This document shows, one piece after another, positions 7,501-34,696 of a stretch of 35,098 nucleotides of DNA. Below the pieces are notes generated by a model. The model saw only the letters and a program-made list of their open reading frames with translations, made no database searches and was not told the origin of the DNA. This stretch comes from an uncultured Oscillospiraceae bacterium (GTDB lineage Bacteria; Bacillota; Clostridia; Oscillospirales; Acutalibacteraceae). The DNA lies in contig CASDTR010000032.1 in NCBI GenBank assembly GCA_949283785.1, forward strand, positions 1 to 35,098. Direction: 5' to 3'. Position numbers and translations under genes: made by a program. Every line of letters begins with the position of its first letter. The stretch's first letter is position 1.

Positions 7501-10131
7501 TCAGACTTCCTCGTGGGTGCCGTAGAAGGCGTTGAGATACATCTGCTTTATCTCTTTGAAGAGAGGATATCTGGGGTTCGCGCCAGTACACTGGTCGTCG
7601 AAGGCCTGCTCAACCATCTCGTCGAGAGTCGAGAGGAATTTCTCTTCGTCAACGCCTGCGTCCTTTATGGTCTTGGGGATGCCCACAGCGTCCTTGAGCT
7701 CCGTGATCTTCGTAAGAAGGGTGTTTACCTTCTCCTCGTCGGTCTTGCCTTCAAAGCCCAGGAAGGAGGCTATCTCGGCATATCTCGCCATGGTGTGAGG
7801 ATACTCATACTGGGGGAATGTGCCCATCTTTCTGGGCTGCTCCGCACAGTTGAACATGATTACCTCGTTTATGAGAAGGGCGTTTGCCACGCCGTGGGGA
7901 AGGTGGTGGAAGGCACCCAGCTTATGGGCCATTGAGTGGCATACGCCCAGGAAGGCGTTCGCGAAAGCCATACCCGCCATTGTGGAGGCATCGGCCATTC
8001 TCTCTCTGGCTCTGGGATTTGCCGCTCCCTCGTTATATGCGGCGGGAAGATATGCAAAGATATTTTTCAGGGCCTTGAGAGCCATGCCGTCGGCATAATC
8101 GGAAGCCATTACGGAGACATAAGCCTCGAGAGCGTGGGTCATGGCGTCGATACCCGATGCGGCCGTAAGACCCTTGGGCATATTCATCATCATGTCCGCG
8201 TCGATTATGGCCATGTTGGGCATGAGCTCATAGTCGGCGAGAGGATATTTAATGCCTGTATCCTGGTCGGTGATAACGGCGAAGGGAGTTACCTCGGAGC
8301 CTGTGCCCGCCGATGTGGGAACGGCGATGAAGTTTGCCTTCTCTCCCATTCTCGGGAAGGTGTAGACCCTCTTGCGTATATCCATGAATCTCATGGCCAG
8401 ATCCATGAAGTCAACCTCGGGATGCTCGTACATTACCCACATGATTTTGCCCGCGTCCATTGCGGAGCCGCCGCCAACTGCGATGATGCAGTCGGGCCTA
8501 AAGGCCGCCATCTGGGCGGCGCCTTCCTTGGCGCATGCAAGGGTGGGGTCGGGAGCTACGTCAAAGAACGTGGTGTGCTGTATTCCCAGCTCGTCAAGCT
8601 TATTTGTGATTGTCTTTGTGTATCCGTTATTGTAAAGGAAGCTGTCGGTTACGATGAATACCTTCTTCTTGTTCATAACCTTGCCCAGCTCATCGAGAGC
8701 TACGCCTAAGCAGCCTTTCTTAAAGTATACCTTCTGGGGTGTTCTGAACCAGAGCATATTCTCTCTCCTCTCGGCAACGGTTTTGATATTCAAAAGATGC
8801 TTTACTCCAACGTTTTCGGAAACGGAGTTGCCGCCCCAGGAACCGCAGCCCAGTGTAAGAGAGGGCTTGAGCTTAAAGTTGTAAAGGTCGCCGATGCCGC
8901 CCTGTGAGGAGGGTGTGTTTACGAGAATACGGCAGGTTTTCATTGCGGCTTCAAATTTATTGAGCTTCTCCTGCTGGTTTACAACGTCGATATATATTGA
9001 GGAGGTATGTCCGTAGCCGCCGTCGGCTACAAGTCTCTCAGCCTTTGCAACTGCCTCGTCAAAGGTCTTTGCCTTATACATTGCAAGGACGGGTGAGAGC
9101 TTTTCATGGGCAAATTCTTCGGAGATGTCAACGGACTCCACTTCGCCGATGATGATCTTTGTATCAACGGGAACGTCAACGCCCGCAAGCTTTGCGATTG
9201 TGTGGGCTGACCGGCCGACAATCTTTGCATTGAGAGCGCCGTTGATGAGGATTGTCTTTCTCACCTTCTCGATTTCGTCGTCCTTGAGGAAGTAGCAGCC
9301 TCTGTCGGCAAACTCCTTCTTGACTGCGTCGTATACGCCCTCGAGAACCGTTACCGACTGCTCGGAGGCGCAGATCATGCCGTTGTCAAAGGTCTTTGAG
9401 TGAATTATGGAGTTAACGGCGACTTTGATATCGGCGCTGTCGTCGATGATTACGGGTGTGTTGCCCGCGCCTACGCCTACTGCGGGCTTGCCTGAGGAGT
9501 AAGCAGCCTTGACCATTCCGGGTCCGCCTGTTGCGAGGATTATATCGGCAGTCGCCATAACCTCGTTTGTGAGCTCAAGGGAGGGTGTGTCGATCCAGCC
9601 GATAATTCCCTCGGGAGCGCCTGCGGCAACTGCCGCGTCACGCACGATTTTTGCTGCGGCGATTGTGGAGGCCTTTGCTCTCGGATGGGGTGAGAAGATG
9701 ATTCCGTTTCTCGTCTTGAGAGCGATAAGGGATTTGAAGATAGCCGTGGAGGTGGGGTTCGTTGTGGGGATGACCGCAGCGATAACTCCTATGGGCTCCG
9801 CTATTCTCTTGTATCCGAATTCCTTGTCGTATTCGATAACGCCGCAGGTCTTTGTATCCTTGTAGGCGTTGTAAATGTACTCTGCCGCGTAGTGGTTCTT
9901 GATGACCTTATCCTCTACTACGCCCATGCCCGTCTCTTCCCGCGCCATTTTCGCAAGGGGGATTCTTGCCTTATTGGCAGCGCTGGCAGCTGCGAAAAAG
10001 ATTTTATCGACCTGCTCCTGAGTGTAGGCGGCGAAAACCTGCTGTGCCTGACGGATTTCACTCATCCTTGCGCGGAGCGCGTCAAGATTATCTACAACTG
10101 CGGGGCTTACTGCGGCTTCTTTTTTAGCCAT
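7501..10131 (-). CDS. adhE: Bifunctional aldehyde-alcohol dehydrogenase
   Basis: AdhE reduces acetyl-CoA to acetaldehyde and then ethanol, reoxidising two NADH during fermentation. The 876-aa length is full. The N-terminal CoA-acylating aldehyde dehydrogenase domain (about 15-440) shows PTTNPTSTAIFKS and the catalytic Cys254 in GMICASEQS. The C-terminal iron alcohol dehydrogenase (about 460-870) has GGGSAMDAGK (553-562), PTSAGTGSEVTPFAVI (605-620) and putative iron ligands Asp662, His666, His732 and His746. The start at 10131 has TAGGAGG at a good distance. It is monocistronic with a strong promoter and a Rex-like operator. AdhE enzymes form filaments (spirosomes). The iron site makes the enzyme oxygen-sensitive, fitting an anaerobe. 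Confidence 0.97.
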   Translation of the reverse strand: MAKKEAAVSPAVVDNLDALRARMSEIRQAQQVFAAYTQEQVDKIFFAAASAANKARIPLAKMAREETGMGVVEDKVIKNHYAAEYIYNAYKDTKTCGVIEYDKEFGYKRIAEPIGVIAAVIPTTNPTSTAIFKSLIALKTRNGIIFSPHPRAKASTIAAAKIVRDAAVAAGAPEGIIGWIDTPSLELTNEVMATADIILATGGPGMVKAAYSSGKPAVGVGAGNTPVIIDDSADIKVAVNSIIHSKTFDNGMICASEQSVTVLEGVYDAVKKEFADRGCYFLKDDEIEKVRKTILINGALNAKIVGRSAHTIAKLAGVDVPVDTKIIIGEVESVDISEEFAHEKLSPVLAMYKAKTFDEAVAKAERLVADGGYGHTSSIYIDVVNQQEKLNKFEAAMKTCRILVNTPSSQGGIGDLYNFKLKPSLTLGCGSWGGNSVSENVGVKHLLNIKTVAERRENMLWFRTPQKVYFKKGCLGVALDELGKVMNKKKVFIVTDSFLYNNGYTKTITNKLDELGIQHTTFFDVAPDPTLACAKEGAAQMAAFRPDCIIAVGGGSAMDAGKIMWVMYEHPEVDFMDLAMRFMDIRKRVYTFPRMGEKANFIAVPTSAGTGSEVTPFAVITDQDTGIKYPLADYELMPNMAIIDADMMMNMPKGLTAASGIDAMTHALEAYVSVMASDYADGMALKALKNIFAYLPAAYNEGAANPRARERMADASTMAGMAFANAFLGVCHSMAHKLGAFHHLPHGVANALLINEVIMFNCAEQPRKMGTFPQYEYPHTMARYAEIASFLGFEGKTDEEKVNTLLTKITELKDAVGIPKTIKDAGVDEEKFLSTLDEMVEQAFDDQCTGANPRYPLFKEIKQMYLNAFYGTHEEV

Positions 10132-17971: not shown

Positions 17972-19219
17972 ATGAAAGCAAGCGAAAGCACAAAAAATTT
18001 CAGCTCAAAGCTGAAAGAAAACACCAATTACTGCCTGCGTGAAATTAAGCACATCTGCTCAAATTTCGACAAGCGTGGCTCGGGCTCTAAGGGCGAACGC
18101 CAGGCGCAGGAGTATATGGCAACCCGTCTTCAGGATTGGGCAGACGATGTGTCGATCGAAGAGTTTACTCTCCACCCCGCAGCGTTTATGGCCTGGGTCA
18201 TCATCTGCGGCATCGGTCTTATTGTATCGGTATTCCTTTACAATTTCGTATCTCCCCTTATCTCCATGATAATCCTGCTCCTGTGCGGGCTGAGCGTAAT
18301 TATGGAGTTCCTTATGTATAAGCAGTTCATTGACCCCTTCTTCCCCAAAAAGACCTCGGCCAATGTCGTCGCCGTGAGAAAGCCCAAAGGCGAGGTAAAG
18401 CGCCGCATAGTTTTCTCAGGTCACTGCGACGCGGCCCACGAGTGGTATTTCACCCACCTGGGCGGAGCGAAACTCCTTACGACGGTTATCGTAATCGGCT
18501 TCGCAAGCCTTATTTTCGCTATTGTAAGCTCGATTATAGCCGTGGCTCAGGGCAGCGTATTCGCCGCCCCCGTTGACGGCTTTGCCAAAACCCTCGGCAC
18601 AATTCAGTATTTCCTTATCCCCGTAGGCGTCATCGTCCTCTTCTTCACAAACTGGAAGCTGGTAGTTGACGGCGCTAACGATAACCTGACGGGCGTTGTG
18701 GGCTCAATGGCCGTACTCAAGTTCATGGCCGATAACGACATCCGTTTTGAAAACACAGAGGTCCGCGCAGTGCTCACAGGCTCCGAGGAAGCGGGCCTGA
18801 GAGGCGCAAAGGCTTACTCAAAGAAGCACCTCAAAGAGTGTCAGGAGATTGAAACCGCCTTTATCGGCCTCGAGACTTTCCGCGATTTCGAATATCTGGC
18901 GGTTTACAGCAGAGACATGACGGGCACCGTCAAGAACGACCCGAGAGTCTGCGCCCTTCTTAAAACCGCCGCCAAGGAAGCGGGACTTGACCTGCCCTAC
19001 AAGAGCGTTTTCTTCGGCTCATCAGACGCAGCGGCGGTTTCTCAGGCGGGCATCCCCGCCGCCACCCTCGCCTCCATGGACCCCGCCCCCGCCCGCTACT
19101 ACCACACCAGAACGGACACGGCGGACAACCTTGACTCAAAGACAATGCAGGCAGGACTTCACATAGCCCTTGAGGCCGCGTTCCTCTTTGATGAAAAAGG
19201 CCTTCAGGAAAATTATTGA
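17972..19219 (+). CDS. Membrane-embedded M28-family zinc metallopeptidase
   Basis: The 415-aa protein is an M28 (aminopeptidase-type) enzyme whose fold is interrupted by membrane segments. Hydrophobic segments lie at about 72-115 (two) and 167-226 (two), inserted before and after the first metal ligand. Ligands and catalysts: His151 in SGHCDA, Asp237 in GANDNLTG, the Glu272/Glu273 pair in TGSEEAGLRG, a probable Glu301 in GLETF where Asp is more usual, and His378 in YYHTRTDTADNLD. The substrate is unknown. The next gene, 17 nt downstream, is a paralogue that has lost these residues, suggesting a heteromeric membrane complex. Confidence 0.85.
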   Translation: MKASESTKNFSSKLKENTNYCLREIKHICSNFDKRGSGSKGERQAQEYMATRLQDWADDVSIEEFTLHPAAFMAWVIICGIGLIVSVFLYNFVSPLISMIILLLCGLSVIMEFLMYKQFIDPFFPKKTSANVVAVRKPKGEVKRRIVFSGHCDAAHEWYFTHLGGAKLLTTVIVIGFASLIFAIVSSIIAVAQGSVFAAPVDGFAKTLGTIQYFLIPVGVIVLFFTNWKLVVDGANDNLTGVVGSMAVLKFMADNDIRFENTEVRAVLTGSEEAGLRGAKAYSKKHLKECQEIETAFIGLETFRDFEYLAVYSRDMTGTVKNDPRVCALLKTAAKEAGLDLPYKSVFFGSSDAAAVSQAGIPAATLASMDPAPARYYHTRTDTADNLDSKTMQAGLHIALEAAFLFDEKGLQENY

Positions 19220-25514: not shown

Positions 25515-27059
25515 TTAAAAGCGTATCTTCACTTTATGTCTGCCCTTTTTTCCGTAAAGGCGCACAATCCCCGTTTTTGCAAAGGGATAACTCTCTATCT
25601 CTCGGCGGCAGTCGGTTTCGATATCCTTCGGCCTGCCGTGAAGGAAGATCACAGTGGCCTCGTCGTTATCCTCGTTCTGGACGAACTCCATGACAAAGAG
25701 CTTGTCGTCCCTGCTGTAGGCAAAAGAGATAAGATCGCCGTTGGTCCGCTGAGGATAGGGCCTCGAAAGTGATTCTATGACGGGGGATTTCAAAATCTTT
25801 TTGTCGTAGGCCCAGTAGACGCTGCTCCAGTTGTTGCGGTTGAAAAACTCAATAAGGTGGTCTATGTGGCCTATCCACTCGGTTCCGCCCGTAAAGCCGC
25901 CCCATTCGCCCACCACAACGGGCACCTGAAGGCGCTGCTGGCTTCTCATGTGCTCCTCAAAAATCGAATCCGCCCTTTCGTTGCTGGCGTATTTGTAGAG
26001 GGGGGAGTCAACCAGCAGGTCGTAGCCGTGAGGGGCGAAGGCAAGCTGAGCTTCCCTTTTGCCGTTCACCTCAACGGGCGGAGCGCTGTAGGGTATGCCG
26101 AGATTTGAATAATAGGAGTTTTCCATAAGGATTATTCCCTTATCCGTCACCTCTCTGATTGCCGCCGCCCCTTTATTGATAAAGGGAGAATAGTAATTTA
26201 CGTCGAAATCCCTGATAATGTCCTCGCAGGAGAGCACCGCCTCGTGGAAAAGCTCCTTTCGGGACAGTATCTCCCTGAGCGCCGCAAGCTTCGCGGGACT
26301 CGCAACCCGCGCGGCGGTTTTTCCTATGAGCCTGAAAAAGCCCGATTTCTCCCTGCCCTTATCGAAGCAGGAGGAGAGCTCAAATTTTCTCGAAGCTCTG
26401 CCCGCCCTTTGCTCCGCCATTTTCACCGCCGTCTCTATAAGAGTTGTGAATACCTTGCCTCCCGAGGTTCCGGGATATGGCTCGTTCATAAGGTCAAAGC
26501 CGAAATAGGCAGGGCTCTTTGAAAATCTTTCGGCCACATGCCTGAGCATATCGCAGTAGTAGTCCTGAAGGCCCTTGCCGTTTACCTTTTCGTTTCTCCA
26601 GAAGGCGTCAAAGGATTTCTGCACCGCCCTGCCGTAGAAATATCCCTCGGCCCAGATAAAGGCCGCCTTTTTGAACTGCTCGTCACCCGTAAGGCACGCC
26701 CAGTACGGAGCGCCGTCCCCGAGGCCGCTCTTGGGACCGTAAAGATCCTGATGTATGTCTATGAAAAAGTAAATCCCGTACTTTTCGCAGTATTTTACTA
26801 TTTTTTCTATCTCGCCGAGATACTCCTCGTCGTAGACTCCCGGCTCAGGCTCAACCGCGTCCCAGATGACGCCCAGCCTTATGAGGTTAAAGCCCAGCTC
26901 CTTTATCTCACGCAGGGTGTCCTCATCCCATTTGAATTTGTATTTCCTGTCACCGGATAATGTCGGCTTTCCCTTATTCACAAGATTTATGCCGTTGAAT
27001 ATGCACTCTCTGCCCTTCTCATCCCTGAATTTCAGCCCCTCGGTATAAATCCTCTCCAT
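25515..27059 (-). CDS. Cytosolic GH5 glycosidase, endoglycoceramidase-like
   Basis: The 514-aa protein (ATG at 27059 with AAAGGAG 9 nt upstream; the ATG at 27068 abuts that site) has a (beta/alpha)8 GH5 core. The acid/base Glu193 is in FDLMNEPYPG and the nucleophile Glu385 in VVVGEWGGF. Other strings (GFNLIRLGVIWDAVEPEPG, FIDIHQDLYG, GAPYWACL) recall the endoglycoceramidase branch, which releases glycans or sugars from glycolipids; a cellulase-type activity is less likely. There is no signal peptide, so the substrate would be an imported glycolipid or steryl glycoside. It is divergent from the AraC regulator at 27209, its probable controller. A beta-sandwich domain lies at about 430-514. Confidence 0.82.
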   Translation of the reverse strand: MERIYTEGLKFRDEKGRECIFNGINLVNKGKPTLSGDRKYKFKWDEDTLREIKELGFNLIRLGVIWDAVEPEPGVYDEEYLGEIEKIVKYCEKYGIYFFIDIHQDLYGPKSGLGDGAPYWACLTGDEQFKKAAFIWAEGYFYGRAVQKSFDAFWRNEKVNGKGLQDYYCDMLRHVAERFSKSPAYFGFDLMNEPYPGTSGGKVFTTLIETAVKMAEQRAGRASRKFELSSCFDKGREKSGFFRLIGKTAARVASPAKLAALREILSRKELFHEAVLSCEDIIRDFDVNYYSPFINKGAAAIREVTDKGIILMENSYYSNLGIPYSAPPVEVNGKREAQLAFAPHGYDLLVDSPLYKYASNERADSIFEEHMRSQQRLQVPVVVGEWGGFTGGTEWIGHIDHLIEFFNRNNWSSVYWAYDKKILKSPVIESLSRPYPQRTNGDLISFAYSRDDKLFVMEFVQNEDNDEATVIFLHGRPKDIETDCRREIESYPFAKTGIVRLYGKKGRHKVKIRF

Positions 27060-27208
27060 AAACCGCATCTCCTTTCCGTTATATTTTTATTATACAGAAA
27101 CGGGAAAAAAGAAACATATCTTTTTCGGCATGATTTATATACATTACGGACCGATTTGTTTGATTTTTTTTTACGGTGTGATATAATTTTATGTGTGAGG
27201 TGGATAAT
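27060..27208. promoter_or_regulatory. Divergent promoter region GH5 / araC-type gene
   Basis: For the plus strand, TATAAT (27182-27187) with TTGATT (27160-27165) at 16 nt drives the AraC gene. For the minus strand, TATAAT (27094-27089) lies about 30 nt before the GH5 start with no clear -35. About 65 nt between the two promoters are free for regulator binding. The plus-strand start near 27194 rules out an ATG at 27191 as the AraC start. Confidence 0.6.
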
Positions 27209-28015
27209 TTGAAAAAATACCTGAATCCCCCCGACGGCGGAACTGAGTTTTCCCCGCGGCTTGCTGAAATATTCAACGGCGACACATATCAGGCCGCCAA
27301 AACGAACAGCGCGGCTCAGCCTGTGAAAGCCGATTACATACTTATAAGAATAATCGAAGGCAGCATTGTTATAATTCTTAAATCCGCCGAATTTTCCGCA
27401 CAGGCGGGGAGCCTGCTTCTGGCGGACAGCAAGGATTTCGTCGATATTTCGTCACCGTGCGCCTGCTGGATTATGCGCTTCAACTCTTCCTCGGCGCCTC
27501 CCGTCTTTGAAAAAAAGACCCTCTACACGGTGCCATTCGCTCCCGAGGAAACGGAGCTGCTCTCAAAGCTCTTCGATGAAAGGGAGTGGGACGAAAGGCT
27601 TTTTTCCTCTTTTTGCAGCGGCGTTTTCGCCCTGTATTACCTCGAAACGGCGGACAGATATTTAAAGAACAAAAACCCCGTAACGCCCTACCACGCCGAG
27701 ATTTGCGAGACAATTGAATACATAAAGGGGCACTCGGACAGCGTTGGCGTTGCAGAGCTTGCGGAAAAACTCCACCTTTCAGAGAGAATGTTCAGGAAAA
27801 TATTTTCGCAGGAAACGGGCTCCTCCCCCAACGCCTACATACAGAAGGTGCGTCTCGGGAAAGCCAGAGAGCTCTTAAAGGACCCGACTCTTTCGGTGGG
27901 TGAAATCTCCGACATGCTGGGATATTCCAGCCAGTTCCACTTCTGCATTGCCTTCAAGAAGGCCTACGGACTCTCCCCTTCGGCGTACAGGAAAACCCCG
28001 TCGGTGATTTTGTGA
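27209..28015 (+). CDS. AraC-family transcriptional regulator
   Basis: The 268-aa protein begins at a TTG (27209) preceded by GAGGTGG at a good distance. The N-terminal half (about 15-130) resembles a cupin-type sensor (YILIRIIEGSIVIILKSAEF). The C-terminal 100 residues carry both AraC helix-turn-helix motifs: VGVAELAEKLHLSERMFRKIF, then LSVGEISDMLGYSSQFHFCIAFKKAYGLSP. It is divergent from the GH5 glycosidase and most likely activates it in response to a sugar or glycolipid cue. The next 1 kb downstream is non-coding repeat island C. Confidence 0.9.
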   Translation: MKKYLNPPDGGTEFSPRLAEIFNGDTYQAAKTNSAAQPVKADYILIRIIEGSIVIILKSAEFSAQAGSLLLADSKDFVDISSPCACWIMRFNSSSAPPVFEKKTLYTVPFAPEETELLSKLFDEREWDERLFSSFCSGVFALYYLETADRYLKNKNPVTPYHAEICETIEYIKGHSDSVGVAELAEKLHLSERMFRKIFSQETGSSPNAYIQKVRLGKARELLKDPTLSVGEISDMLGYSSQFHFCIAFKKAYGLSPSAYRKTPSVIL

Positions 28016-28930: not shown

Positions 28931-28953
28931 ATTCGATGCCCTGCAAAAACTTC

Positions 28954-28983
28954 ACGCCCCCGTGAGTCTCCTCACGGGGGCGT
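28954..28983 (-). terminator. Terminator of the SCP2/transketolase/tetR operon
   Basis: A perfect 13-bp, GC-rich stem (28954-28966 with 28971-28983) with a TCTC loop is followed on the minus strand by GAAGTTTTTGC. It lies 21 nt beyond the tetR stop codon. Confidence 0.88.
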
Positions 28984-29004
28984 ACTGATCTTATTTGTTT
29001 GGTT

Positions 29005-29673
29005 TTATGTCTGCGGCTGCGACGGTTCCACGGCTCTGCGCACGAAATCGGTCATTGACTCTATAAGCTCATCGCTGTTGCCCAGTTCCCTGCTGCCGAT
29101 AAACAGCTTTTTACGCTCCGCATAGTATCCCGAAGCAAAAGAAAACTGATACATCATCACAAGATTGTCGAGCATGAAAGCCGTCGCGTTGACATCAAGG
29201 TCCTTGCGCACTCTGCCGATGGCCTTGTCGTAACCGAGAATTTCACGGTAAAGCCGTACAGTCACCGCCTCAGCATTATCCGATATCCTTTCGGAAAGGC
29301 TGCGCAGGCTCTGGGACGAACAGTCAAGATATATCTGATGCATCTGCGGATACTCCAAGGCGGAATCCCTTGCAAGGCGAAGCATTTCCTCAAAGGCGCT
29401 GACTACGCCCTTAGTGGTATCCACCCCCGAAAGCAGCTTATACATCATCTCGAGACAGTGATCCATAACCGCCAGGAACAGGTCTTCCTTCGACTCAAAA
29501 TAGCTGTACATTGAGCCTATGCTGATACCCGCCGCTTTGGCTATGGTGTTTATGTTCGCCGCGTTGAAGCCCTTGGAGGCAAATTCGTTTATTGCCGCAT
29601 CAAATACCCGGCGCCTTCTTTCCGCCGTAGTGGATTTAAACGGGGAAGTTGCCGTATTCTTTGAATTACTCAT
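29005..29673 (-). CDS. TetR/AcrR-family transcriptional regulator
   Basis: The 222-aa protein has an N-terminal TetR DNA-binding domain (about 18-65): RRRRVFDAAINEFASKGF, then INTIAKAAGISIGSMYSYFESKEDLF. The C-terminal alpha-helical ligand domain is unlike any I can name; it resembles the large fatty-acid/drug-responsive groups. It is the last gene of the SCP2 / aminotransferase / transketolase operon, so it probably represses its own operon. The palindrome at 34549-34564, between the promoter and the first gene, is the obvious candidate site. The ligand is presumably the hydrophobic substrate or product of the pathway (inference). Confidence 0.9.
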   Translation of the reverse strand: MSNSKNTATSPFKSTTAERRRRVFDAAINEFASKGFNAANINTIAKAAGISIGSMYSYFESKEDLFLAVMDHCLEMMYKLLSGVDTTKGVVSAFEEMLRLARDSALEYPQMHQIYLDCSSQSLRSLSERISDNAEAVTVRLYREILGYDKAIGRVRKDLDVNATAFMLDNLVMMYQFSFASGYYAERKKLFIGSRELGNSDELIESMTDFVRRAVEPSQPQT

Positions 29674-29699
29674 GCAATGTCTCCGTTTTAAGAATTATC

Positions 29700-30518
29700 T
29701 CAGCCCTTAGCGAGAGCCGCTACCTCAAGCATGAAGTTGCCTATCTGACCGGCAAACTCGGGAGCACCGTCAAGAATGAGCTTGCCCTCCTTGAGGGAGT
29801 CGAGCATGTCGGCGGTTCCGAAAAGGATGCCCATGGCGTCGTCATAGTTGGGGAAGCGCATAAGGAAGAAGGGCAGCGAACGCTTGTAGGCGCCTCTTCC
29901 CGCCTTGGATTTGCCCGCCTTGATGCGGATATAAGCGGAGCAGTCGGGATCGCAGTCGATAGCCATGGCGTAAACGCGGTCGGGGCTGGGAGTGGTCCAG
30001 TTCTTTATCTCCTCGTGGCCCGCCTTGTTGAGCTGGCTGATACCGCTGGTTATAAGATAGAAGTAGCACTTGCATGTGAGCTTTTTCATATCGGGGTCCG
30101 TGGGGGGCTCTTTGGCTCCCAGAACCGCCGACATCTTGAGAAGCACCTGCACTATCGAAACAAGGGTGGACACATATTTTGCCTTCTTGACCTTGATTTT
30201 CGGAATACAGTCGGGTCCCATCTTGCCCTTAAAGAATTTATTAAGGGCGGGGATGTTCTTAAACTGAAGCTCCACATGAGGGTCACGGTCAACGCGGCCG
30301 GCGTGTACCTGCCAGTCGTCAAGGCCGTTGATGACAAAATGAGTTGCAACCTTTCCCTCGGGCGCGTCGGGGTCAAGAGCGCTGACCTGGACTACCGCAT
30401 GGGTGTTTTTGAACTTTGCCCCAAGGGACGGTATATCCGTAGCGATTACCTTGGCCAGAGGGAGGGCGCAGTTGAGAAATATTTTACTCGAATAAATATC
30501 TTCTTTTGTAACTGCCAT
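29700..30518 (-). CDS. SCP2-like (sterol carrier protein 2 fold) protein, two-repeat
   Basis: The 272-aa soluble protein looks like two SCP2-type halves. The first (about 45-110) includes DPHVELQFKNIPALNKFFKGK and the second (about 215-265) includes RFPNYDDAMGILFGTADML, KEGKLILDGAPE. Both resemble the 'strand, x-F-x-x-x-x-x-L-L-x-G-K, strand, G' pattern of SCP2 domains, which hold lipids, sterols or fatty acyl chains in a hydrophobic tunnel. It is a diverged paralogue of the protein at 33757-34527. There is no signal peptide. It starts 3 nt after the transketolase C-half and precedes tetR, inside the six-gene operon. The family call is from pattern only; a profile search would settle it. Confidence 0.65.
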   Translation of the reverse strand: MAVTKEDIYSSKIFLNCALPLAKVIATDIPSLGAKFKNTHAVVQVSALDPDAPEGKVATHFVINGLDDWQVHAGRVDRDPHVELQFKNIPALNKFFKGKMGPDCIPKIKVKKAKYVSTLVSIVQVLLKMSAVLGAKEPPTDPDMKKLTCKCYFYLITSGISQLNKAGHEEIKNWTTPSPDRVYAMAIDCDPDCSAYIRIKAGKSKAGRGAYKRSLPFFLMRFPNYDDAMGILFGTADMLDSLKEGKLILDGAPEFAGQIGNFMLEVAALAKG

Positions 30519-30521
30519 ATA

Positions 30522-31532
30522 TTACACCTCGTCATCCCATGAATCGTCCTCTTCAAAGTCCTTATGCATAACCTCACGGACAGCGTCGATGATGCCGTTG
30601 GCGTCGATGCCGACCATGGACATAATATCCTCGTGAAGACCGATAGGTGCAAATTTATCGGGATGTCCGAGCTTCTTGAAGGCACAGCCCTTACCGTACT
30701 GGGCGATAACGTCCGCAACGGCTGTTCCGAGACCGTTGATTACGTTGTGGTCCTCGGCGGTGATGATGCGGCGTGTATCGACGATAGCCTTCTGAACAGC
30801 TTCCACATCGAGAGGCTTGAGGGTATGCATGTTGAGAACTCTGACTTTAAGTCCGTCTGTTGCCTCAAGTGATTTTGCCGCCTGAAGAGCCTGATATACG
30901 CAGGAGCCGCAGGCGATAACGGTGATATCCGTACCCTCGTGAACCGTATGGGCCTTTCCCAGCCGGAAGCCGTACTCGGTATCGGTGTAGAGGATGCGGT
31001 CAAATCCGCGGTTGATGCGGATGTAGACGGGGCCGGGGGTCTCATAGGCGGCGCGAACCGCGTTGACCGTCTCCATGCCGTCTGCGGGGCAGATGTACGT
31101 CATGTTGGGGAATGTGAGAAGGCATCCCATATCAACAATGGCGTGGTGGGTGGAGCCCGCCTGGCCGAAGGATGTGCCCGCGTGGCTGCCGATGATTTTA
31201 ACGTTGATGTTCTGATAGCAGATATCGGCGTGGATCTGATCCGCAACGCGCATTGTGGCGAAAGCCGACATTGTGGATACGAAGGGCACAAGACCTGCCT
31301 TAGCCATACCTGCCGCGATACCGAACATATTCTGCTCGGCGATACCTACGTCGAAGAAGCGCTCGGGGAATTCCTTTCCGAAAACGCCTATTTTAGTTGA
31401 ACCGGCAAGGTCGGCTGTAAGCGCGACAACCTCGGGATGTTCTCTTCCCAGTTCGCACATCGCTTTTCCGTAATACTCCGCAGTGGCCATTGCCTCTGAA
31501 CCTACCGCTGTGTAAACAAGTCCTCCTGCCAT
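30522..31532 (-). CDS. Transketolase C-terminal half (split TPP enzyme)
   Basis: The 336-aa protein matches the pyrimidine-binding plus C-terminal domains of split transketolases. Its features are LTADLAGSTKIGVFGKEFPERFFDVGIAEQNMFGIAAGMA with the catalytic Glu66 that activates thiamine diphosphate, SHAGTSFGQAGSTHHAIVD, and the C-domain strings VIACGSCVYQALQAA and RRIITAEDHNVINGLGTAVADVI. The final 14 residues are an acidic tail, which I do not recall from housekeeping transketolases. It follows the N-half with a 2-nt gap, so the two assemble as one enzyme. Housekeeping pentose transfer is possible, but the SCP2/aminotransferase context suggests a specialised ketol substrate. Confidence 0.9.
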   Translation of the reverse strand: MAGGLVYTAVGSEAMATAEYYGKAMCELGREHPEVVALTADLAGSTKIGVFGKEFPERFFDVGIAEQNMFGIAAGMAKAGLVPFVSTMSAFATMRVADQIHADICYQNINVKIIGSHAGTSFGQAGSTHHAIVDMGCLLTFPNMTYICPADGMETVNAVRAAYETPGPVYIRINRGFDRILYTDTEYGFRLGKAHTVHEGTDITVIACGSCVYQALQAAKSLEATDGLKVRVLNMHTLKPLDVEAVQKAIVDTRRIITAEDHNVINGLGTAVADVIAQYGKGCAFKKLGHPDKFAPIGLHEDIMSMVGIDANGIIDAVREVMHKDFEEDDSWDDEV

Positions 31533-31534
31533 GA

Positions 31535-32404
31535 TTACTTCGCCTCCCTTTCTACGCGCTCAACACGTTTTTTATAATACTCATCAAGGTCCTTTGCCGC
31601 CTGGTCGTGAAGGTCCTGGTCGATGGCGCCGTAGTGCCACTTGTAGTTGTTTTCCATAAAGCTGATGCCCGCGCCCTTTACCGTATTGGCGATTATCATA
31701 ACGGGCTTTTCCGTTGCGGCGTAGCCCTTGTCGATAGCGTCCGCAAGCTCCTTGAAGTTGTGTCCGTCAACCTCGTAAACGTCGAAGCCGAATGCTCTCC
31801 ACTTGTCCGCGAAGGGCTCAAGCTTCATCTCGTCCTCGGTAGGGCCGTCCATCATGAGACGATTGCGGTCTACGAAGGAAATCATGTTTGTGGTCTTGAA
31901 CTGACCTGCCGACATGGCCGCCTCCCAGTTGGAGCCCTCGTCGCACTCGCCGTCGCCCAGAAGGCAGAAAGTCATATAATCCTTGCCCTGTACTCTCGCT
32001 GCAAGAGCCGTACCTACGGCAATTGAAAGGCCGTGGCCAAGGGAGCCTGTGGAAGCGTCTACGCCCTTAACCTTATTGCTGTCAAGGTGAACTCCCATCT
32101 TTGAATTTGTAAGGTTGAAGGTTTTAAGCTGAGCGGGGTCGTTCCAGCCCATATCGCAGAGAAGTCCCGCATAGCCGATACCGATATGTCCCTTACTGAG
32201 GATGAAGCGGTCGCGGTCCTCCCAGTCGGGGTCGTCCTTCTTGAGTCTCATGTACTTGTAATAGAGAATTGTAAGAATGTCCATTGAGCTGAGGCTTCCG
32301 CCGATGTGTCCGCTGCCTGCGCAGAGAGTGGTGTCAAGGCAAGTGTGGCGAAGCTGATTGGCTTTTGCTTCAAGGTCAAGCCATTCCTGCTTGGTGAGTG
32401 GCAT
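31535..32404 (-). CDS. Transketolase N-terminal half (split TPP enzyme)
   Basis: The 289-aa protein carries the diphosphate-binding half of thiamine-diphosphate enzymes. GDGECDEGSNWEAAM (150-164) and Asn181 form the Mg/TPP motif, with SGHIGGSLSSMDIL (31-44), FILSKGHIGIGYAGLL (68-82) and STGSLGHGLSIAVG (118-131). SKGHIGIGY differs from the SKGHxxPALY I expect in pentose-phosphate transketolases, near the substrate channel. AAGGAGG precedes the ATG. It is separated from the aminotransferase gene by an 83-nt spacer with a strong hairpin, and is followed within 2 nt by the C-half. DesA of the Clostridium scindens steroid desmolase is also a transketolase N-half. Confidence 0.92.
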   Translation of the reverse strand: MPLTKQEWLDLEAKANQLRHTCLDTTLCAGSGHIGGSLSSMDILTILYYKYMRLKKDDPDWEDRDRFILSKGHIGIGYAGLLCDMGWNDPAQLKTFNLTNSKMGVHLDSNKVKGVDASTGSLGHGLSIAVGTALAARVQGKDYMTFCLLGDGECDEGSNWEAAMSAGQFKTTNMISFVDRNRLMMDGPTEDEMKLEPFADKWRAFGFDVYEVDGHNFKELADAIDKGYAATEKPVMIIANTVKGAGISFMENNYKWHYGAIDQDLHDQAAKDLDEYYKKRVERVEREAK

Positions 32405-32447
32405 ATTGAATAAACCTCCTTATGATTTCAATTTTTATAATTCCAAC

Positions 32448-32472
32448 CGGAGAGAGGGGCTCCCTCTCTCCG
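32448..32472 (-). other. Intercistronic 11-bp hairpin between the aminotransferase and transketolase genes
   Basis: CGGAGAGAGGG (32448-32458) and CCCTCTCTCCG (32462-32472) pair perfectly around a 3-nt loop. On the minus strand no T-run follows directly (GTTGGAATTATAAAAATT), so it is more likely a partial attenuator or an mRNA processing/stability element than a full terminator. Confidence 0.6.
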
Positions 32473-32487
32473 TCAATGCCCGTGATT

Positions 32488-33741
32488 TTATGCGTCGGGA
32501 TTGTTCTTCCTGACGGCCTTGTATGCGTCCTCGGCAATTTCGATTGCGCGGTTTATCTCCTCGTGGGTAAGGGATGCGTTGATGAAGTGGTTGTGGTGGG
32601 AGGTGATGAATATGCCTCTCTGTACGCACTCGGCAACCCATTGCTGGTGGAGCATGAGGGAGTCGTCGTTGGCGGTTCTCAGGTAGAACAGGGAGGGAGC
32701 TCCCGATACCACAAGCTTGAAACCGTGTTCCTCGGCGGCCTTTACGAAGCCGTCCGTAAGCTCCCTTCCAAGTTTGTCGAACATGGCGGGAGTGTTGAGC
32801 TTCTTCATCTTGTTGATGCAGGCGATACCCGCCGCAAAGGGAACGGCGCTCATCCAGTAGCTGCCCGTATAAGTAAGGGAGCTGACCGCATCCTTGAGGG
32901 ACTCGCATCCGCACAGGGCTGAGACGTTGTAGCCGTTTGCAAGGGCCTTGCAGAAGCAGATAAGGTCCGCCTTAAAGCCGAAGAAGTGGTCGGAGCCTGC
33001 AAGGTCAAGGCGGAAGCCTGCACGAACATCGTCGATGATGAGAACTACGCCGTGGTCGTCGCAGAGCTTGCGTACCTTCTGCCAGTAGCCCTCGTCGGGG
33101 AAGAAGTTATCGACGAAGTTGCCGTGCATGTAGGGGGTGGCGATAAGTCCCGCTATTTCGCCCTTATACTCGGTGAACACCTTTTCGAGTGCGGGATAGT
33201 CGTTGAAATCAACGTAGATATTGTTGGCCACTTCCTCTTCCAGGATACCCGGATAGTCGAGCTTCTGGGTCCAGGGAGCGACGCCGTGGTAATAGCCGTT
33301 AAAGAAAACAATCTTCTTGCGCCTTGTGGCGGCGCGGGCCGTCATAACCGCAAGGGACGTTACGTCGCCGCCGTTTTTGGCGAAAAATGCCCAGTCGGCG
33401 CAGGCAACTGTATCAACAAGGAGCTCTGCGAACTCCACCATCTTTGCAGAGGGGATAGTAACGCAGTTCTCTTTCTTGAGCTGCTCGAGAGCGGCGGCGT
33501 CTACGTCGGGGTCGCAGTAGCCCAGAACGTTGGGGCCGTAGCCGCACATAAAGTCGATAAACTCGTTTCCGTCAAGATCCCAGAACTTGCTGCCCTTGGC
33601 GTGCTCGGAGAACATGGGGAAAACGTTGTTGGGAATATAGCAGCCCTCCGACGGTCCCTGATGGCCGTAAATACCGGAGGGGATTACGTTAAAAGCCTTT
33701 TTAAACATTTCATGGCTTTTTTCAAACTTGTAAAGCTTCAT
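32488..33741 (-). CDS. Class-III PLP aminotransferase, glutamate-1-semialdehyde aminomutase-like
   Basis: The 417-aa fold-type I enzyme resembles GSA aminomutase. Features are WDLDGNEFIDFMCGYGPNVLGY (54-75), the phosphate loop KNGGDVTSLAVMTARAAT (122-139; GSA-type enzymes have NSGTEAT here), YYHGV (150-154), LIIDDVRAGFR with PLP-binding Asp237 (234-244), and the Schiff-base Lys265 in FCKALANGYNVSALCG. The NGGD and DDV changes and the lack of any haem genes argue against a role in tetrapyrrole synthesis. It starts 15 nt after the first SCP2-like gene with AGGAGG upstream. It may aminate an aldehyde or ketone made or used by the neighbouring transketolase (inference). Confidence 0.85.
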   Translation of the reverse strand: MKLYKFEKSHEMFKKAFNVIPSGIYGHQGPSEGCYIPNNVFPMFSEHAKGSKFWDLDGNEFIDFMCGYGPNVLGYCDPDVDAAALEQLKKENCVTIPSAKMVEFAELLVDTVACADWAFFAKNGGDVTSLAVMTARAATRRKKIVFFNGYYHGVAPWTQKLDYPGILEEEVANNIYVDFNDYPALEKVFTEYKGEIAGLIATPYMHGNFVDNFFPDEGYWQKVRKLCDDHGVVLIIDDVRAGFRLDLAGSDHFFGFKADLICFCKALANGYNVSALCGCESLKDAVSSLTYTGSYWMSAVPFAAGIACINKMKKLNTPAMFDKLGRELTDGFVKAAEEHGFKLVVSGAPSLFYLRTANDDSLMLHQQWVAECVQRGIFITSHHNHFINASLTHEEINRAIEIAEDAYKAVRKNNPDA

Positions 33742-33756
33742 CCTTGGCGCCTCCTG

Positions 33757-34527
33757 TTATGATAAGTACTGGCTTACTCTGTCCAGTATTCTGTTTGCGT
33801 TGTCTATCATGTTGATCATACCGCTCATTGCGATTGAGCCGTCGCAGATGCAGGCCATTGCGCTGAGCTTGCCGGCAAGAAGGTCGCCCGCAACGTCGAT
33901 GCCGGAGAATTCCATGACCGCTCTCGGATTGTCGCAGCGCTTTTTAAGGGCGATGATCCTGTGGTTCTTTACTCTGAGAGTAAGTCCCACGCTGCCCTTG
34001 ACGTTCATGGCGATGTCGCCGTCGGGGATAAGGTTGGCGCTGAACTTTCCGCTCTGGTCGTTATTGGCTATCTGCGCTATGGCGACGCCCGCAACGTAGA
34101 GGGTAAGTATGGTGCTTATCTCCTTGAATTTCGGGTCCTTCAGATCCTCCTCGGAGGGACGAAGGTATTTTGCAAGAAGGTCCGTCAGAGGCACGAAGCT
34201 CTTGAGAAGGAATTTGATGTGGGTAAATCCCTTGGACGGAATGGGTGTCGTGGTGCCGTCGAGCAGGCCGTTGAACTTTTCGCAGGATGAGAAGGGAAGC
34301 TTGATGTCACAGTTAGGGGCAACCCCGTCTTCCATTCTGCAGCGGCCGTTTTTGAAGAGAAGGGTGGCGGCGGGGCCGTCCTTTACCTCGAAGGCTACTT
34401 TAAGCGGCTTCTTGTTCGTAAGCAGCGCTCTCGCCGCCGGATCAAGCTCGCAGAGATTTTCGCATGCGCCCAAAACTGCGTACAGATTTACATAAGCGGC
34501 AGCTCTGGGATCGGTTTTAGTTAACAC
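33757..34527 (-). CDS. SCP2-like (sterol carrier protein 2 fold) protein, operon-leading paralogue
   Basis: The 256-aa soluble protein has two SCP2-like halves. One is at about 40-105 (VAFEVKDGPAATLLFKNGRC, CDIKLPFSSCEKFNGLLDGTTTP). The other is at about 165-245 (GSVGLTLRVKNHRIIA, AVMEFSGIDVAGDLLAGKL, CDGSIAMSGMINMIDNANRIL), ending in the G-x-x-x-G-x-x-x-x-x-x-N helix typical of SCP2 domains. Its order of elements parallels the protein at 29700-30518. The start is a GTG at 34527 with GGAGG about 9 nt upstream. It is the first gene of the operon, after a long leader with a TetR-type palindrome. The likely role is presenting or buffering a hydrophobic substrate for the enzymes that follow (inference). 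Confidence 0.65.
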   Translation of the reverse strand: MLTKTDPRAAAYVNLYAVLGACENLCELDPAARALLTNKKPLKVAFEVKDGPAATLLFKNGRCRMEDGVAPNCDIKLPFSSCEKFNGLLDGTTTPIPSKGFTHIKFLLKSFVPLTDLLAKYLRPSEEDLKDPKFKEISTILTLYVAGVAIAQIANNDQSGKFSANLIPDGDIAMNVKGSVGLTLRVKNHRIIALKKRCDNPRAVMEFSGIDVAGDLLAGKLSAMACICDGSIAMSGMINMIDNANRILDRVSQYLS

Positions 34528-34548
34528 AATCGTTTCCTCCTTCTTTTA

Positions 34549-34564
34549 GAGTGAGCGCTCATTC
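34549..34564. promoter_or_regulatory. TetR-type palindromic operator in the operon leader
   Basis: GAGTGAGCGCTCATTC contains the perfect 10-bp palindrome TGAGCGCTCA (34552-34561) with two further paired bases outside it. Palindromes of this kind and length are common TetR-family sites. A matching half-site, AGTGAGC (34646-34640, minus strand), lies 22 nt downstream of the -10 box. TetR is encoded at the end of this operon, which makes autoregulation the simplest reading. Confidence 0.6.
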
Positions 34565-34667: not shown

Positions 34668-34696
34668 ATTTTAACAAAAACCCCCTTTCATGTCAA
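34668..34696 (-). promoter_or_regulatory. Promoter of the SCP2/aminotransferase/transketolase/tetR operon
   Basis: On the minus strand a perfect -35 TTGACA (34696-34691), a 17-nt spacer and -10 TAAAAT (34673-34668) are present. The predicted start is near 34661, leaving a leader of about 130 nt. The region 34700-34960 beyond it is AT-rich and I see no gene in it. Confidence 0.7.

What the first reader, a model, noticed from the sequence alone, without database searches (positions are those of the whole stretch)
29005..34564. Six-gene TetR-controlled operon joining SCP2-like lipid carriers with a split transketolase and a class-III aminotransferase
The sequence shows one minus-strand unit (promoter 34668-34696, terminator 28954-28983) coding SCP2-like, PLP aminotransferase, transketolase N, transketolase C, SCP2-like and TetR, with gaps of 2-83 nt. 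Established: DesA/DesB, the steroid-17,20-desmolase of Clostridium scindens, is a split transketolase that cuts a steroid side chain; Rif15A/15B are split transketolases acting on an amino sugar. Inference: this operon processes a hydrophobic ketol (steroid, sterol, sphingoid or isoprenoid) by TPP-dependent C2 removal or transfer plus amination, with SCP2 proteins holding the substrate. I know of no described pathway with this gene set.
Basis: partly seen in the sequence, partly recalled or inferred. Interest (0 to 1): 0.85.

Follow-up and report, generated by a model that had tools for sequence, protein, structure and literature searches.

The report
Gut operon predicted to dismantle sphingolipids
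A set of genes conserved across many gut bacteria looks like an unreported route for breaking down the backbone of sphingolipids from food and host cells, by removing its amino group and then cutting off two carbons with a transketolase.

Summary
In detail: six minus-strand ORFs (SCP2-like, class-III aminotransferase, split transketolase N and C, SCP2-like, TetR), gaps 2-83 nt. Both SCP2-like proteins model as SCP2 folds. Gene order SCP2-AT-TKN-TKC-SCP2 is complete in 49 of 65 loci; 13 others end at a contig end; 3 carry only SCP2-AT.

The surroundings point to sphingoid bases rather than steroids. Among solved structures the aminotransferase is closest to FumI, which acts on a sphinganine analogue. 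In three loci a sphingomyelinase-family gene sits inside the operon. In 398 genomes of the family, endoglycoceramidase-type GH5 occurs in 74 of 109 genomes with the aminotransferase and 6 of 289 without. The transketolase is a separate clade that keeps catalytic histidines but has lost an Asp (59 of 59) and an Arg (59 of 59) of housekeeping enzymes.

Proposed: a sphingoid base is deaminated to a 1,3-dihydroxy-2-ketone, a transketolase donor; transketolase passes C2 to an acceptor and releases a fatty aldehyde; SCP2 proteins carry the lipids. No activity is shown. C3 stereochemistry and a missing ceramide amidase in this genome are open problems. Eight searches of open-access papers listed no description.

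The parts
33757..34527 (-). SCPa: SCP2-like lipid carrier (256 aa), first gene
   Evidence: Pfam SCP2 21.4 bits vs cut-off 21.3; AlphaFold pLDDT 93.3; Foldseek hits are SCP2 proteins and alkylsulfatases with an SCP2-like domain
32488..33741 (-). Class-III PLP aminotransferase, FumI-like
   Evidence: Aminotran_3 135 bits; best solved relative FumI 6hbs, 286 bits, 37% identity
31535..32404 (-). Transketolase N-half (ThDP domain)
   Evidence: Transketolase_N 149.5 bits; best solved relative split TK 6yak; His motifs kept
30522..31532 (-). Transketolase C-half, with Ala at the positions taken to be E. coli D469 and R358
   Evidence: Transket_pyr and Transketolase_C; residue comparison of 59 and 25 sequences
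29700..30518 (-). SCPb: second SCP2-like lipid carrier (272 aa)
   Evidence: No Pfam hit itself; AlphaFold pLDDT 93.8, Foldseek top hit SCP2 2cx7; homologous to SCPa, hhalign 96.9%
29005..29673 (-). TetR-family regulator
   Evidence: TetR_N 56.8 bits; homologue after the operon in L021-L023, L112 and L120
34668..34696 (-). Sigma-70-type promoter TTGACA-17-TAAAAT with extended -10
   Evidence: similar boxes upstream of L021-L023 and L112 by eye
34549..34564 (.). Palindrome GAATGAGCGCTCACTC, probable TetR operator between promoter and start codon
   Evidence: core TGAGCGCTCA once in the window, 0.03 expected; near-identical palindromes at the same place in L021-L023 and a longer one in L112, by eye
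28953..28984 (-). Intrinsic terminator (14-bp stem)
25515..27068 (-). GH5 of the endoglycoceramidase type (Glyco_hydro_5_C), separate unit downstream
   Evidence: co-occurrence with the aminotransferase
27191..28015 (+). AraC-family regulator, divergent from the GH5 gene
   Evidence: HTH_18 86 bits

Best explanation
The operon is a catabolic unit for sphingoid bases freed from sphingolipids. The FumI-like aminotransferase removes the C2 amino group of sphinganine or sphingosine (HOCH2-CHNH2-CHOH-R), giving HOCH2-CO-CHOH-R, which is the head group of a transketolase donor ketose. The modified split transketolase cuts C2-C3, passes the two-carbon ketol unit to an aldehyde acceptor (probably a sugar phosphate, so that it enters the pentose-phosphate pathway) and releases a long-chain aldehyde. 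The two SCP2-like proteins hold the hydrophobic substrate and product. TetR represses the unit at the palindrome before the first gene. Shown by sequence: gene set, conserved order, folds, residue changes, association with sphingolipid hydrolases. Inferred: substrate, order of steps, C2 acceptor, role and ligand of TetR.
For: AT: best solved relative is FumI (286 bits, next 164; 37% identity), with shared stretches MCxYGPN, DDVRAGFR, TGSxWxSAVP. Sphingomyelinase-family gene inside the operon in L062, L063, L066: the profile of these and L130 has sphingomyelinases as its six best PDB hits, E 9e-9 to 3e-4. The same family lies 0.9-1.2 kb from a ceramidase-like gene in L130, L174, L177. Co-occurrence: GH5_C 74/109 AT+ vs 6/289 AT-, genera 22/34 vs 2/101; ceramidase-like 62/109 vs 28/289; SMase-like 23/58 vs 4/182. 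GH5_C on the operon's contig within about 7 kb in the window, G001 and G017. TK-C: Ala for Asp 59/59 vs 0/25, Ala for Arg 57/59 vs 0/25, catalytic His motifs kept in TK-N; separate clades. SCP2 folds. Alanine dehydrogenase/PNT-family neighbour in 4 loci, which would recycle alanine if pyruvate is the amino acceptor (inference). Passages of PMC5573996: changes at this Asp raise TK activity on aliphatic aldehydes.
Against: No biochemistry. Natural sphingoid bases are 3R (recalled), whereas TK products are 3S. The window's genome has no match to neutral ceramidase, PF02275 or the SMase-like profile at E 1e-20, so how it would free a sphingoid base from ceramide is unknown. Clostridium hydrogenum has SCPa-AT and its best TK-C match is 30%, so the AT has a use without this TK. 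The GH5 is far below NCBIfam's endoglycoceramidase cut-off (112.5 vs 700), sterylglucosidase is among its solved relatives, and in most other genomes it lies on another contig than the AT. Most ceramidase hits are partial and weak; 67 of 90 genomes pass the cut-off, and the ones beside the SMase-like gene in L174 and L177 do not. 25 of 109 AT+ genomes have neither GH5_C nor a ceramidase hit. The GH26 control is also enriched, weakly (12/109 vs 11/289). Tests are not corrected for phylogeny or genome size.
Confidence: 0.6

Rival explanations
1. Detoxification only: the aminotransferase and SCPa disarm antibacterial long-chain bases, and the transketolase pair merely clears the ketone.
For: SCPa-AT without TK genes next to it in L026, L027, L068 and G024; in the genomes of L026, L027 and L068 no TK-C match is above 44% identity. 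FumI-type enzymes detoxify by deamination (PMC9858248 passages).
Against: TK halves lie with the AT in 49 of 65 loci; strong association with sphingolipid hydrolases, which defence would not need.
Confidence: 0.17
2. Synthesis run the other way: TK adds a C2 unit to a fatty aldehyde and the aminotransferase makes an unusual (threo) sphingoid-like amino lipid without serine palmitoyltransferase.
For: TK is reversible and makes 3S products, which would fit a threo base better than breakdown of natural 3R bases.
Against: Association with sphingolipid hydrolases. No lipid acyltransferase or head-group gene is among the 25 most frequent of the 84 Pfam families of the nearest neighbours (92 ORFs; the rest were not shown).
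Confidence: 0.1
3. Steroid or other hydrophobic ketol side-chain cleavage of the DesAB kind.
For: DesAB is a split TK acting on a cortisol side chain (PMC3735941 passages). SCP2 proteins bind sterols. MFS_2 (melibiose-type) transporters, the general type named for desD, lie next to the operon in L032 and L050 and behind it in L111, with relatives in L052, L059, L065.
Against: Steroids offer no role for the aminotransferase. No dehydrogenase of the desC (zinc) kind is among the 25 most frequent neighbour families, though no dedicated search was made. The hydrolase association is with sphingolipids.
Confidence: 0.05
4. Amino-sugar or surface polysaccharide module, as TK plus aminotransferase pairs occur in such clusters (recalled).
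For: Class-III AT also matches GSA aminomutase and GntE models.
Against: No glycosyltransferase family is among the 25 most frequent neighbour families; SCP2 carriers; FumI is closer than any GSA enzyme among solved structures.
Confidence: 0.05

Closest known systems
FumI, aminopentol (hydrolysed fumonisin) aminotransferase of Sphingopyxis, PDB 6hbs
   Same: Class-III fold, 37% identity over 397 aligned residues, shared subfamily stretches; substrate is a sphinganine analogue
   Different: FumI belongs to mycotoxin degradation (recalled gene context); here the gene sits with SCP2 and transketolase genes and its substrate is untested
DesAB steroid-17,20-desmolase of Clostridium scindens
   Same: Split transketolase in an inducible operon, proposed to cut a C2 unit from a lipid and feed it to the pentose-phosphate pathway (passages of PMC3735941)
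   Different: Aminotransferase and SCP2 genes present; no desC-like gene noticed; direct sequence comparison not done because DesAB sequences were not at hand
Split transketolase of Carboxydothermus hydrogenoformans, PDB 6yaj/6yak
   Same: Same two-chain architecture; best solved relative of both halves
   Different: Thought to be a normal sugar-phosphate transketolase (recalled); the operon's TK lacks an Asp and an Arg that housekeeping TKs of relatives have
Endoglycoceramidase (GH5), for the neighbouring gene
   Same: Window GH5 has best PDB hits to endoglycoceramidase II and the GH5_C domain
   Different: Below NCBIfam cut-off; no signal peptide seen by eye, so perhaps intracellular

Membership tests
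SCP2 | SCP2 fold | tested here: met
   Foldseek of both models, SCP2 proteins at E 1e-4 to 1e-3
SCP2 | Pfam SCP2 score over cut-off | tested here: inconclusive
   SCPa 21.4 vs 21.3 bits; SCPb no hit, 2 of 31 alignment members hit, best E 1.2e-4
Transketolase | ThDP, pyrimidine and C-terminal domains with catalytic histidines | tested here: met
Transketolase | Acceptor-side Asp and phosphate-site Arg of sugar-phosphate TKs | tested here: not met
   Asp replaced in 59 of 59, Arg in 59 of 59 (Ala in 57), a further Arg kept; mapping to E. coli numbers recalled
Transketolase | C2 ketol transfer | not testable with these tools
   needs assay
FumI-type aminotransferase | Closer to FumI than to other class-III enzymes | tested here: met
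   286 vs 164 bits among PDB sequences
FumI-type aminotransferase | Deamination at C2 of a 2-amino-3-hydroxy lipid | not testable with these tools
   needs assay
DesAB steroid desmolase | desABCD gene set | tested here: inconclusive
   no zinc dehydrogenase among the 25 most frequent of 84 neighbour families, but MFS_2 transporters beside a few operons; no dedicated search
DesAB steroid desmolase | Sequence membership in DesA/DesB clade | not tested
   DesAB sequences not available here
Endoglycoceramidase (window GH5) | NCBIfam equivalog cut-off | tested here: not met
   112.5 vs 700 bits
Sphingomyelinase (operon gene of L062, L063, L066) | Closest solved relatives are sphingomyelinases | tested here: met
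   six best PDB hits of profile A4 (beta-hemolysin counted as sphingomyelinase from memory); single-sequence search of L063 gave none, Pfam gives only Exo_endo_phos

The most novel reading that the evidence does not exclude
A widespread anaerobic pathway of sphingolipid breakdown in Oscillospiraceae-type gut bacteria, without phosphorylation or sphingosine-phosphate lyase: glycan or head group off, amide off, C2 nitrogen off by transamination, then a lipid transketolase that turns the head of the sphingoid base into sugar phosphate and its tail into a fatty aldehyde.
Probability: 0.55. Interest if true: 0.9.

Novelty: new variant of a known kind. Interest (0 to 1): 0.8.

Why it matters
Sphingoid bases are signalling and antibacterial lipids (recalled) that reach the gut from food, host cells and Bacteroides (recalled). 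If the reading is right, about a quarter of the sampled genomes of this family (109 of 398) carry a route that removes them and that automatic annotation would call transketolase, glutamate-semialdehyde aminomutase and hypothetical protein. It would be, to my knowledge, the second case after DesAB of a transketolase working on a lipid. It can be tested directly with purified proteins and a cultured strain (E. coprostanoligenes ATCC 51222, locus L077).

Tried and rejected
Considered and set aside: housekeeping pentose-phosphate transketolase (rejected); SCP2 labels as false positives (rejected); hem-pathway glutamate-1-semialdehyde aminomutase (far below the models' cut-offs; FumI closer). Genes recurring beside the operon as further pathway steps are limited to a few loci: NAD-epimerase 7, class-II aldolase plus second aminotransferase 6, M28 in 4, MFS_2-type in 5, alanine dehydrogenase/PNT in 4. 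In the census of nearest neighbours (92 ORFs, 52 upstream and 40 downstream, from the loci) no family is in more than 6. Ntn-type ceramide amidase in the own genome: none. A single-sequence PDB search of the operon's phosphoesterase gave nothing; only the profile did. Eight paper searches listed nothing on a transketolase or aminotransferase in bacterial sphingoid-base breakdown; listings are capped and hold open-licence papers only. One search was for DesAB, for transketolase residues. Of papers I saw listings with abstract starts, and passages.
Full report
Observation. The six minus-strand ORFs, their gaps (15, 83, 2, 3, 26 nt), the promoter and the terminator are as described. Pfam confirms the aminotransferase, both transketolase halves, TetR and, just over the cut-off, SCP2 for the first protein. 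The last non-regulatory protein has no Pfam match, but its AlphaFold model (pLDDT 93.8) finds SCP2 proteins first, and the two families are homologous (hhalign 96.9%, E 1e-10). The first protein's model (pLDDT 93.3) matches SCP2 proteins and alkylsulfatases, which carry an SCP2-like domain (recalled). Each chain looks like two SCP2 units in tandem, judged from the order of secondary-structure elements.

Conservation. A scan of genome contigs with the first SCP2-like protein gave 65 loci: mostly Clostridia/Oscillospiraceae MAGs, many from gut and rumen samples by their titles, plus E. coprostanoligenes ATCC 51222, Clostridium hydrogenum and a Pelosinus MAG. The order SCPa-AT-TKN-TKC-SCPb is complete in 49 of 65. 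Three (L026, L027, L068) have SCPa-AT followed by unrelated genes, and 13 end within 324 bases of the last gene found (the script put L026 and L068 in its truncated list, the map shows other genes behind the AT). The loci were drawn by SCPa, so its own presence proves nothing; the other four genes are independent. Of these 65, BLAST finds a TetR homologue only in L021-L023; it is also in L112 and L120. Within the window's family the aminotransferase (E up to 1e-60) is in 109 of 398 genomes, one of them by a fragment, and in 34 of 135 genera.

Aminotransferase. Among PDB sequences FumI scores 286 bits, the next (a glutamate-semialdehyde aminomutase) 164. Identity to FumI is 146 of 397 aligned residues. 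The printed alignment shows shared stretches that the aminomutase lacks. NCBIfam models for the aminomutases and GntE match far below cut-off. FumI-type transaminases remove the C2 amino group of hydrolysed fumonisin, a sphinganine analogue (passages of PMC9858248).

Transketolase. The genome has two other PF00456 matches: one is a split TK of 40-42% identity, one I take to be DXS. FastTree puts the 59 operon TK-C and 62 operon TK-N sequences each in one clade without any of 25 and 26 other sequences, the own other TK among them (support 0.99). These are distinct sequences of at least 250 aa, split at 50% identity to the window. In TK-C the Asp of GEDG is Ala in 59 of 59 operon sequences and Asp in 25 of 25 others; the Arg of ATRxxYG is Ala in 57 of 59 (Ser 1, Thr 1), Arg in 23 of 25 others (Ser 2); a further Arg is kept in both. 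In TK-N the catalytic histidine motifs are kept. A TK-C found later in G024, on another contig than the AT, is 54% identical with Ser at the Asp position and was not in those counts. The equivalence to E. coli D469 and R358 is from memory. Passages of PMC5573996 state that D469 mutants and the yeast mutant D477E convert aliphatic aldehydes better, that TK is reversible and that its products are 3S.

Sphingolipid context. A GH5 with Glyco_hydro_5_C lies downstream in the window, with endoglycoceramidase II as best PDB hit but below the NCBIfam cut-off. In G017 (L111) such a GH5 lies about 7 kb behind the operon on the same strand, after two MFS_2 transporters, a CDP-glycerol glycerophosphotransferase and a hydrolase-like protein below the Pfam cut-off. 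In three loci (L062, L063, L066; termite-gut MAGs to judge from their project names, which is recall) a phosphoesterase gene, secreted to judge by eye, lies between AT and TKN. A profile of these three plus L130 has sphingomyelinases as its six best PDB hits. In L130, L174 and L177 this family lies 0.9-1.2 kb from a ceramidase-like gene, which passes the Pfam cut-off in L130 (G015) but not in L174 and L177 (30.4 and 25.0 vs 32.1 bits).

Co-occurrence. GH5_C: 74 of 109 AT-positive, 6 of 289 AT-negative genomes; genera 22 of 34 vs 2 of 101; 4 of the 6 exceptions are in AT-positive genera. In most of these genomes GH5 and AT lie on different contigs. Ceramidase-like (E up to 0.001): 62 of 109 vs 28 of 289; four genomes have a full-length strong ceramidase, all AT-positive. 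Neither GH5_C nor ceramidase: 25 of 109 AT-positive. SMase-like (E up to 1e-20): 23 of 58 vs 4 of 182, taking the 240 genomes to be the first 240 of the 398 (inference from the handles); all four exceptions are in AT-positive genera. Control GH26: 12 of 109 vs 11 of 289, genera 8 of 34 vs 5 of 101, so a weaker background of hydrolase-rich genomes exists. None of these is corrected for phylogeny or genome size.

Neighbour census. Of 92 nearest neighbour ORFs (52 upstream, 40 downstream; 180-700 aa) no Pfam family is in more than 6: NAD-epimerase 6, class-II aldolase 4, alanine dehydrogenase/PNT 4, M28 4, MFS_2 2 among the 25 families shown of 84. So no further step is fixed in the operon. Alanine dehydrogenase would fit a pyruvate-dependent transaminase; the MFS_2 transporters resemble in type the one named for desD and could as well import a glycolipid.

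Mechanism. Removing the C2 nitrogen of a 2-amino-1,3-diol gives a 1,3-dihydroxy-2-ketone, the head of a transketolase donor. Loss of the acceptor-hydroxyl and one phosphate contact with retained ketol-handling residues fits a donor whose rest is an alkyl chain. DesAB is the precedent: a cortisol-induced split TK proposed to cut the C2 side chain and feed it to the pentose-phosphate pathway (passages of PMC3735941). This chain of steps is inference.

Regulation. A palindrome GAATGAGCGCTCACTC lies between promoter and start codon (34549-34564). Its 10-bp core occurs once in the window, 0.03 expected. Close variants lie at the same place in L021-L023 and a longer one in L112, all loci with TetR. 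The same core lies in L020 (own genome, C58) between a TetR homologue and another class-III aminotransferase.

Weak points. Natural sphingoid bases are 3R (recalled), opposite to TK products. The window genome shows no ceramidase, PF02275 amidase or SMase-like gene. C. hydrogenum keeps SCPa-AT without an operon-type TK. No activity has been measured.

Verdict. The structure of the finding is right and conserved, and the substrate is most likely a sphingoid base. The enzymes are known families in a combination for which the searches listed under Tried and rejected found no description.

Noticed in passing
L020 (G000:C58), 413-2595: A TetR homologue (34%) beside a second class-III aminotransferase in the same genome, with the same TGAGCGCTCA palindrome between them: possibly a paralogous regulated unit.
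   Followed up: partly
L027 10001-12030, L026, L068: SCPa-AT pair alone, AT 81-82% identical to the window, in Clostridium hydrogenum, a Pelosinus MAG and a Lachnospiraceae MAG: looks like horizontal transfer of a minimal module; L026 and L027 share a divergent AraC-type gene.
   Followed up: partly
window 17972-19219; L059, L061, L065, L067 upstream of SCPa; L116 15125-16393; L123 15255-16583: M28 peptidase-family proteins, membrane-anchored by eye, near the operon or near the GH5; an untested candidate for the missing ceramide amidase.
   Followed up: partly
L032, L046, L051, L055, L056, L057 upstream of SCPa: Divergent pair of a glutamate-semialdehyde-aminomutase-like aminotransferase and a class-II aldolase, in six loci.
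   Followed up: partly
L024 14884-15903 and six further loci: NAD-dependent epimerase/dehydratase family gene directly after SCPb.
   Followed up: partly
L081 8433-9635 and further loci among the nearest neighbours: Alanine dehydrogenase/PNT-family gene next to the operon in four loci; could regenerate pyruvate from alanine formed by the aminotransferase.
   Followed up: no
L032 7931-9379, L050 1083-2735, L052 644-2314, L059 18781-20343, L065 5454-7010, L111 8760-14705: MFS_2-type transporters near the operon (Pfam-tested in L050 and L111, BLAST clustering for the rest): possible importer.
   Followed up: partly
L060 10827-11425: A ParE-type toxin gene with a small ORF before it, inserted between SCPa and AT.
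   Followed up: partly
window 7501-10131: Bifunctional aldehyde/iron alcohol dehydrogenase (AdhE type).
   Followed up: no
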